Source: Corynebacterium sp. p3-SID1056 (GTDB taxonomy: Bacteria; Actinomycetota; Actinomycetes; Mycobacteriales; Mycobacteriaceae). From it: DNA of 64,000 bases. Every line of letters begins with the position of its first letter. Positions within the stretch are counted from its first letter, which is position 1. Shown one piece after another: positions 15,241 to 17,817 of this stretch. Location: assembly GCF_025152525.1 (NCBI RefSeq), contig NZ_JALXXL010000002.1, positions 124,001-188,000 on the forward strand, read 5' to 3'. The notes beneath the pieces are model-generated. The model did not search any database. It was not told where the DNA came from and was given only the letters and a program-made list of their open reading frames with translations. The position numbers and the translations under genes were made by a program.

Positions 15241-17817
15241 TTACTCCTCACCCTCGGGGCCACCGCTTATCGACGACTGCGTCGCCTCCTGCGCCTCCTC
15301 CATGGTCTTCTCACCCTTTGCCACCGCAGTGGCCTCCTCCTCGCCGGAGTCCTCGACGTTGACGTCGATGGCGAGCAGCTCGACATCGTCGGCAAGATCG
15401 ACCAGACGCACGCCCATCGTCGCGCGCGAGGACGGGCGGATCTGGCTGACCTCGGTGCGGATCACGCCGCCGGCCGAGGTAATGGCGAAGATCTGGTCCT
15501 CCTCGTCGACCGCGAGCGCGCCGATGAGCTTGCCGCGCTTCGGCGTGTACTTGAACGTCATCACGCCCATGCCGCCGCGGCCCTGCTGGTTGTACTCCTC
15601 AATGGCGGTGCGCTTACCGTAGCCGCCGGAGGTGGCCACGAGCAGGAACTCGCCGTCCTGGACCACCGTCATGGCCAGCAGCTGATCGTCGTCGCGGAAG
15701 CGCATGCCCTTCACGCCCGCAGTCGCGCGACCCATCGGGCGCAGTTGCTCGTCGTCCGCGGCAAAGCGGATCGCCTGGCCCTGTTCGGAGACCAACAAGA
15801 TGTCGTCCTCCTCGTTGGTTAGCGCGGCACCGATGAGCGCGTCGCCCTCGTTGAGGTTGATGGCGATAAGACCCGCGGAGCGCGCCGACTCGTAGTCGGT
15901 CAAGCGCGACTTCTTCACGCGGCCATCGCGGGTGGCCAGCACCAGGTAGGGCGCGTCCTCGTAGGACTGGATCTGGATGATCTGGGCGATCTTCTCCTCC
16001 GGCTGGAACTCCAGCAGGTTGGCCACGTGCTGCCCGCGGGCGGTGCGGCCCGCCTCCGGCAGCTCGTAGGCCTTGAGCCGGTAGACGCGGCCGAAATTAG
16101 TAAAGAAGAGGATCCAATCGTGCGTGGAGCAGATGAAGAAGTGCTTGACCACGTCGTCCTGCTTCAGCTCCGCGCCGCGCACGCCCTTGCCGCCACGCTT
16201 CTGGCTCTTGTACGCATCCACCTTGGTGCGCTTGGCGTAGCCGGTGGAGGTGATGGTCACCACGACGTTCTCGCGCGCAATCAGGTCCTCCTCCGTCACG
16301 TCGCCGGTGGCGGCCACGATCTTGGTGCGGCGCTCGTCGCCGAACTTCTCCACGATTTCCTTCAGCTCGGTCGCCACGATGTTGCGCTGGCGCTCCGGCT
16401 TGGCCAGGATGTCCTTGTAGTCCGCGATCTGGCGCTCAATCTCCGCCAGGTCGTCCACGATCTTCTGGCGCTCCAGCGCGGCCAGGCGGCGCAGCTGCAT
16501 GGCGAGGATTTCGTTGGCTTGGATCTCGTCGACGTCGAGAAGCTTCATGAGCCCCTGGCGCGCATCGTCCACCGTCGGGCTGCGACGAATAAGCGCGATG
16601 ACCTCGTCCAGCGCATCGAGGGCCTTGACCAGGCCGCGCAGGATGTGGGCGCGCTTCTCCGCCTCGTCCAAGCGGTACTGGGTGCGGCGAACAATGACCT
16701 CGATCTGGTGCTGCACGTAGTAACGCAGCATCTGATCAAGGCGCAGCGTGCGCGGCACACCATCGACGATGGAGAGCATGTTGGCCGAGAAATTCGTCTC
16801 GAGCTGCGAGTGCTTGTACAGGTTATTCAGCACCACGCGCGGCACGGCGTCGCGCTTGAGCTTGACCACGATGCGCATGCCGATGCGGTCCGAGGACTCG
16901 TCGTCAATGCTGGCGATGCCAGCCATCTTGCCCGCGTTGACCTGGTCCGCGATGCTGTGGATGAAGTTATCCGGGTTGACCTGGTACGGCAGCTCCGTGA
17001 TCACGATGACCTGGCGGTTGCCCACCTCTTCAATCTCGGTCACGCCGCGCATGCGGATCGAGCCGCGGCCCGTGGTGTAGGCCTCCTTGATGCCCTTATC
17101 GCCCACGATCAGGCCCGCGGTGGGGAAATCCGGGCCCTTGACGTAGTTGAGCACCGCGTCCAGGGTGGTCTTCTCGTCCGCGTCGTGGTTTTCCAGGATC
17201 CAGTAGATGGCTTCGGCCAACTCGTTGAGGTTGTGCGGCGGGATGTTGGTGGCCATGCCGACCGCGATGCCGTTCGAGCCGTTCATGAGCAGGTTCGGCA
17301 CGCGCGAGGGCAGCACATCCGGCTCGCGAGTCTTCGAGTCGAAGTTGGGCGAGAAATCCACCGCGTTCTCGCGGATATCGCGCACCATCTCCATCGCCAG
17401 CGGAGTGAGCTTGCACTCCGTGTAACGCATAGCGGCCGGGCCGTCGTTGCCAGGCGAGCCGAAGTTGCCCTGCCCGTGCACCAGCGGGTAGCGCATCGCC
17501 CACGGCTGCGCCATGCGCACCAGGGTGTCGTAGATCGCCCTGTCGCCGTGCGGGTGGTAGTTACTCATCGTCTCGCCGACGGCCTTCACGCTCTTGACAA
17601 AAGAGCGCTCCGGGCGGAAGCCGGCGTCGTACATCGCGTAGATAACGCGGCGGTGCACCGGCTTCATGCCGTCGCGCACCTCAGGAAGCGCGCGACCCAC
17701 GATCACGCTCATCGCGTAATCGATGTAGCTGGTCTGCATCTCCTCATTGATGTCAATGGGCTGGATGGCGTCGAAACCGCCGCCACCTACGCCGCCACCT
17801 AGAGTGTCATCACTCAT
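15241..17817 (-). CDS. gyrA: DNA gyrase subunit A
   Basis: An 858-residue type II topoisomerase A subunit that cuts and rejoins DNA with GyrB to add negative supercoils. The catalytic tyrosine is Tyr132 in AAMRYTECKL. The C-terminal half has the six beta-pinwheel blades and a GyrA box QKRGGKG. The tail is acidic. In the quinolone-resistance region the sequence is YHPHGDRAIYDTLV: Arg93 stands where susceptible enzymes have Ser, Thr or Ala (E. coli Ser83), while Asp97 is kept. The arginine codon is AGG, one base from serine AGC. Transcribed towards the DUF3566 gene; separated from gyrB by a 4-kb island. Confidence 0.98.
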   Translation of the reverse strand: MSDDTLGGGVGGGGFDAIQPIDINEEMQTSYIDYAMSVIVGRALPEVRDGMKPVHRRVIYAMYDAGFRPERSFVKSVKAVGETMSNYHPHGDRAIYDTLVRMAQPWAMRYPLVHGQGNFGSPGNDGPAAMRYTECKLTPLAMEMVRDIRENAVDFSPNFDSKTREPDVLPSRVPNLLMNGSNGIAVGMATNIPPHNLNELAEAIYWILENHDADEKTTLDAVLNYVKGPDFPTAGLIVGDKGIKEAYTTGRGSIRMRGVTEIEEVGNRQVIVITELPYQVNPDNFIHSIADQVNAGKMAGIASIDDESSDRIGMRIVVKLKRDAVPRVVLNNLYKHSQLETNFSANMLSIVDGVPRTLRLDQMLRYYVQHQIEVIVRRTQYRLDEAEKRAHILRGLVKALDALDEVIALIRRSPTVDDARQGLMKLLDVDEIQANEILAMQLRRLAALERQKIVDDLAEIERQIADYKDILAKPERQRNIVATELKEIVEKFGDERRTKIVAATGDVTEEDLIARENVVVTITSTGYAKRTKVDAYKSQKRGGKGVRGAELKQDDVVKHFFICSTHDWILFFTNFGRVYRLKAYELPEAGRTARGQHVANLLEFQPEEKIAQIIQIQSYEDAPYLVLATRDGRVKKSRLTDYESARSAGLIAINLNEGDALIGAALTNEEDDILLVSEQGQAIRFAADDEQLRPMGRATAGVKGMRFRDDDQLLAMTVVQDGEFLLVATSGGYGKRTAIEEYNQQGRGGMGVMTFKYTPKRGKLIGALAVDEEDQIFAITSAGGVIRTEVSQIRPSSRATMGVRLVDLADDVELLAIDVNVEDSGEEEATAVAKGEKTMEEAQEATQSSISGGPEGEE

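What the first reader, a model, noticed from the sequence alone, without database searches (positions are those of the whole stretch)
17539..17574. GyrA carries Arg at the quinolone-resistance position, encoded by a rare AGG codon
Seen: GyrA reads YHPHGDRAIYDTLV with Arg93, at the position of E. coli Ser83. The codon is AGG, unusual in this high-GC genome, and one base from AGC (Ser). Known: changes of this serine are a main cause of fluoroquinolone resistance in corynebacteria and other bacteria. Inference: a recent Ser-to-Arg point mutation and a resistant strain. Asp97 (second hot spot) is unchanged.
Basis: partly seen in the sequence, partly recalled or inferred. Interest (0 to 1): 0.75.

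Follow-up and report, generated by a model that had tools for sequence, protein, structure and literature searches.

The report
Gyrase mutation marking likely fluoroquinolone resistance
This Corynebacterium sequence carries arginine, where its nearest relative has serine, at the best-known drug-contact position of DNA gyrase, a site that has changed many times among its relatives, and this likely makes the bacterium resistant to ciprofloxacin-type antibiotics; it is a known kind of mutation in another lineage.

Summary
GyrA (15241-17817, minus strand) has Arg93, codon AGG at 17539-17541, at the position of E. coli Ser83 / corynebacterial Ser87; Asp97 is unchanged. The nearest protein (P0002) differs only at E209, E490 and site 93, where it has Ser; P0006 (Arg) and P0007 (Ser) differ at site 93 alone. 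The sister locus L001 has Arg through another codon, CGC; the four Ser loci with the same QRDR block use AGC, one base from both. On a tree of 66 proteins built without the site, residue 93 changes most often of 854 sites (21 times; next 15; mean 1.33). Published single Ser87Arg isolates of C. amycolatum and C. jeikeium have ciprofloxacin MIC 2-16 mg/L against 0.016-0.125 in wild type. Six of six close relatives show one GyrA/ParC-type gene. Resistance here is inferred, not measured; the window's own genome is not held. New member of a known kind.

The parts
15241..17817 (-). gyrA, DNA gyrase subunit A, 858 aa
   Evidence: ORF; PF00521 E 5.8e-151 and PF03989; 98% identical to proteins named DNA gyrase subunit A of Corynebacterium, such as P0006, P0007 and P0011
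17539..17541 (-). codon 93, AGG = Arg, at the E. coli Ser83 / corynebacterial Ser87 position
17527..17529 (-). codon 97, GAC = Asp, second hot spot, unchanged
17476..17478 (-). codon 114, CAC = His; Asp in 112 of 120 proteins (the window's own is among the 8 with His)
17563..17589 (-). residues 77-85 VKAVGETMS, the QRDR block found in 39 of 120 proteins
21937..24006 (-). gyrB; around its drug-pocket motif no residue is unique to this window
   Evidence: Pfam; comparison with the 67 of 80 loci that gave a gyrB match

Best explanation
GyrA of this Corynebacterium has Arg at the main quinolone contact where its nearest relative has Ser, most likely through a recent one-base AGC-to-AGG mutation selected by fluoroquinolones, which would make the strain moderately resistant. 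Shown: the Arg codon, Ser in the nearest protein, and, by parsimony, repeated change of this one site. Inferred: that the serine normally holds, through water and a magnesium ion, the keto acid of the drug in the cleaved-DNA complex (published for other gyrases), that Arg removes this anchor here too, and that with gyrase as the only type II topoisomerase one change is enough to raise the MIC. With Asp97 intact the expected level is moderate, as in published single Ser87Arg isolates.
For: Arg93/AGG confirmed. P0002 differs from the window at E209D, E490D and Arg93Ser only (with for site 93). P0006 (Arg)/P0007 (Ser) and P0010 (Arg)/P0015 (Ser)/P0016 (Ile) are identical apart from site 93; of 28 protein pairs with exactly one difference, 5 differ at this site and no other site has more than 2. 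Sister locus L001 reaches Arg by CGC, the window by AGG; the 4 Ser loci with the same block have AGC. Site 93 has 21 parsimony changes on a tree built without it, the most of 854 sites; residues 88-92 and 94-96 have none. Published single Ser87Arg isolates: C. amycolatum (5) ciprofloxacin 2-8, levofloxacin 4, against wild type (4) 0.016 and 0.03-0.06; C. jeikeium (2) 4-16 and 4-8, against wild type (5) 0.06-0.125 and 0.125-0.25 mg/L (PMC12561023, table seen as passages). One GyrA/ParC-type match in each of 6 relatives; PMC7912348 states that corynebacteria lack topoisomerase IV (passages). Bridge role of Ser83/Asp87: PMC9917921, introduction.
Against: No MIC and no isolate. The window's own genome is not held, so a second topoisomerase or an efflux change could not be checked; in the wider search 5 of 61 genomes do show a second, 35-42% identical GyrA-type match, all of them distant ones whose best match is 68% or less. 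DNA of the nearest Ser proteins (P0002, P0004) was not fetched; AGC as the parent codon is inferred from other loci. On the DNA tree window and L001 share Arg and count as one gain (2 changes for Arg among 45 rows); their independence rests on the different codons and on Ser proteins in both lineages. A base error cannot be excluded from one sequence, though P0003, 4 residues away and from another source, also has Arg.
Confidence: 0.88

Rival explanations
1. Arg93 was not made by point mutation in this lineage but came in by homologous exchange from another Corynebacterium that has AGG, such as C. wankanglinii (L009).
For: L009 has the same AGG codon, and the QRDR segment shows raised synonymous-codon identity among holders of the VKAVGETMS block (87% at residues 73-112 against 75% overall), a hint that this segment has moved between lineages.
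Against: In each of 20 sixty-residue windows the gene is closest to L001 among 10 loci compared (98% against 94% for L009 at residues 73-132). Only a very short tract could have come from elsewhere.
Confidence: 0.07
2. Arg93 is a natural, drug-unrelated variant of this group (for example tuning supercoiling in a niche).
For: Non-Ser residues occur widely: Thr in 12, Val in 5 and Ala in 3 of 91 distinct sequences; some may be natural. Arg also occurs in C. wankanglinii, for which the library held no paper.
Against: Ser and Arg occur in proteins that are otherwise identical or nearly so, and Arg, Ile, Val, Phe and Tyr are the residues published for resistant isolates.
Confidence: 0.04
3. The codon is a sequencing or assembly error.
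For: Only one record in the protein search carries this exact protein (P0001, the window itself).
Against: P0003, from another source and contig, is 4 residues away and has Arg too; the codon lies in an intact open frame.
Confidence: 0.02

Closest known systems
GyrA Ser87Arg fluoroquinolone resistance in C. amycolatum and C. jeikeium (PMC12561023)
   Same: Same residue change at the same motif position, Asp at the second hot spot intact
   Different: Different, unnamed lineage near HMSC074A01 and C. imitans; numbered 93 here; no MIC
GyrA Ser87 Val/Ile/Phe/Tyr in C. striatum, C. jeikeium, C. urealyticum (PMC7089888)
   Same: Same site, same presumed mechanism
   Different: Other amino acids; 7 of the 14 isolates in its table also have a change at position 91, which is absent here

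Membership tests
GyrA QRDR position-83-type fluoroquinolone resistance mutation | Substitution at the residue aligned with E. coli Ser83 in GyrA | tested here: met
   Arg93 in HPHGDRAIYD; aligned with index 90 of the solved GyrA chain 3ifz
GyrA QRDR position-83-type fluoroquinolone resistance mutation | Departure from the residue of close relatives | tested here: met
   82 of 120 proteins Ser, 5 Arg, the window's own included; nearest protein P0002 Ser
GyrA QRDR position-83-type fluoroquinolone resistance mutation | Recurrent independent origin (selection) | tested here: met
   21 parsimony changes at site 93, most of 854 sites; AGG and CGC codons in sister lineages
GyrA QRDR position-83-type fluoroquinolone resistance mutation | Gyrase is the primary or only type II topoisomerase | tested here: inconclusive
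   One match in 6 of 6 relatives; the window's own genome is not held
GyrA QRDR position-83-type fluoroquinolone resistance mutation | Raised fluoroquinolone MIC | not testable with these tools
   Only published MICs of other species

The most novel reading that the evidence does not exclude
In this group a QRDR segment (block VKAVGETMS with an AGC serine codon) has passed between Corynebacterium species by homologous exchange, and its AGC codon, unlike the TCC of C. striatum, channels fluoroquinolone selection into Arg and Ile; gyrA resistance spectra across the genus would then follow inherited and exchanged serine codons rather than species biology.
Probability: 0.2. Interest if true: 0.5.

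Novelty: new member of a known kind. Interest (0 to 1): 0.3.

Why it matters
It points to likely fluoroquinolone resistance, arisen many times, in corynebacteria around C. imitans. Searches of the held library for C. imitans with gyrA (4 papers) and with ciprofloxacin resistance (7 papers) listed no title about this group; I saw the listings only. Site 93 being the most often changed residue of the protein in the 66 relatives examined makes it a clean marker of drug selection, and the serine-codon idea can be tested on existing strain collections.

Tried and rejected
Rejected: Arg as the group's standard residue (Ser in the nearest protein); a long recombination import from C. wankanglinii; a GyrB contribution (no unique residue around the pocket motif in the 67 of 80 loci with a gyrB match).

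Tested and left open: exchange of the QRDR segment. Inside residues 33-124 the nine block holders form one group (97/93); outside it the C. mucifaciens locus L011, which lacks the block, joins four of them (99/97), but the AU test does not reject one clade (p 0.25). Synonymous identity is raised in the segment. Suggestive only. Against the codon idea: Val, which is two base changes from TCC, stands in 4 of 7 C. striatum isolates of PMC7089888, and Lys occurs inside the block group (P0047).

Led nowhere: own-genome search (not held); a 2005 paper by Sierra and others (not held); papers on C. wankanglinii (none) and on Corynebacterium with S87R (none).

Recalled, not from a call: the E. coli numbers 67, 75 and 104 used as labels, and the organism of chain 3ifz.

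Full report
What is there. The ORF 15241-17817 on the minus strand encodes an 858-residue DNA gyrase subunit A. Residue 93 is Arg, codon AGG at 17539-17541, in the motif YHPHGDRAIYDTLV; residue 97 is Asp. AGG is 1 of 65 Arg codons of the gene and 22 of 890 in a heuristic gene set of the window. The residue aligns with an Ala at index 90 of the solved GyrA chain 3ifz (organism, M. tuberculosis, recalled).

Where it comes from. The closest genome locus is Corynebacterium sp. HMSC074A01 (L001), 96% identical over 1917 columns of gyrA and 81-93% over the four pieces longer than 1 kb, so the window is probably another species of that group. No whole genome of the window is held.

Relatives at the site. 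Among the 120 proteins listed (best of 7997 scored, the window's own included), 82 have Ser, 15 Ile, 6 Thr, 5 Arg, 5 Phe, 3 Val, 2 Ala, 1 Leu and 1 Lys. Among 91 distinct sequences (102 of 114 fetched loci plus the window gave a usable gyrA; duplicates and two Clostridium loci dropped) 62 have Ser, 12 Thr, 5 Val, 4 Ile, 3 Arg, 3 Ala, 1 Phe, 1 Tyr. All 5 Arg proteins lie among the 39 with the block VKAVGETMS, none among the other 81.

Recent and repeated. P0002 differs from the window at E209D and E490D besides Ser93; P0003 has Arg, P0004 Ser, P0005 Val. P0006/P0007, P0010/P0015/P0016 and P0013/P0014 are identical except for site 93. The window uses AGG, L001 CGC and L009 (C. wankanglinii) AGG, while the four Ser loci with the same block (L006, L008, L067, L076) use AGC; AGG and CGC are each one base from AGC and two from each other. 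On a tree of 66 of the 120 proteins (P0001-P0069 without P0020, P0022 and P0067, which bear the names of other genera), built with the site masked, site 93 changes 21 times, more than any other of 854 sites (next 15, mean 1.33, 563 unchanged); residues 88-92 and 94-96 never change. By parsimony Arg arose 5 times there, though the branches among P0001-P0004 are weakly resolved. On the 45-row DNA tree Arg counts 2 changes, because window and L001 are sisters.

What it likely does. In other gyrases the serine and the acidic residue four positions on hold a water-magnesium bridge to the drug (PMC9917921: abstract and introduction). In corynebacteria this serine (Ser87 there) is the main site of resistance (PMC7089888, first of two parts of the text; PMC12561023, passages; PMC8304765, passages). 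Single Ser87Arg isolates had ciprofloxacin MIC 2-8 (5 C. amycolatum) and 4-16 mg/L (2 C. jeikeium); wild type had 0.016 and 0.06-0.125. Six of six close relatives show one GyrA/ParC-type gene. In a wider search of 61 genomes, 5 distant ones (best match 68% identity or less) show a second, 35-42% identical match; G014 shows two adjoining pieces of one gene. So gyrase would be the only target here, which cannot be checked in the window's own genome. GyrB is ordinary around its drug-pocket motif. I predict moderate resistance; it is not measured.

Codon background. C. amycolatum SK46 has AGC and C. striatum ATCC 6940 has TCC at the site. In PMC12561023 mutants of C. amycolatum show Arg or Ile (9 of 9) and C. 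striatum Phe (9 of 10) or Val (1 of 10); Arg and Ile are one base from AGC, Phe one base from TCC. Against this, Val, two bases from TCC, stands in 4 of 7 C. striatum isolates of PMC7089888. The idea is an inference from two species plus the present group.

A possible moving segment. Among block holders of different subgroups, synonymous-codon identity is 87% at residues 73-112, the highest window of the gene, against 75% overall; holders against non-holders have 76% there. Other windows reach 81-84%. Trees inside and outside the segment differ, but the AU test does not reject one clade (p 0.25). Proteins P0045, P0049 and P0054 carry the block in a part of the protein tree whose other members lack it, and P0052 and P0060 lack it beside a holder. 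Suggestive, not shown.

Verdict. Observation confirmed; the mutation inference is well supported, the resistance inference likely but untested. A new member of a known kind.

Noticed in passing
17476-17478 (GyrA residue 114): His where 112 of 120 proteins have Asp, in the stretch YPLV-x-GQGNFGS; found with Ser, Arg and Val at site 93, so a lineage feature rather than part of the Arg change.
   Followed up: partly
18450-20111: A hipBA-like module (helix-turn-helix protein 18450-18743, HipA-like protein with a DUF6011 tail 18753-20111) sits between gyrB and gyrA; no tblastn match to the HipA at E 1e-10 in 80 related loci.
   Followed up: partly
gyrB-gyrA interval, 17818-21936 and 65 related loci: The stretch between gyrB and gyrA varies from about 0.9 to 6.5 kb among 66 sequences, window included, and seems to carry different ORFs; a possible insertion hot spot.
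   Followed up: partly
17778-17801: A 12-base direct repeat lies where GyrA has four extra residues near its N-terminus, shared with P0002 and P0003 but absent from P0004-P0010.
   Followed up: no
6270-10541 and 10956-14303, minus strand: Two very large ORFs beside gyrA share the start LQNANLKKRIMA; the first has no Pfam match above cut-off, the second was not scanned.
   Followed up: no
35836-37173: Schlafen/AlbA_2-type protein with a RecG-like C-terminal and helix-turn-helix domain.
   Followed up: no
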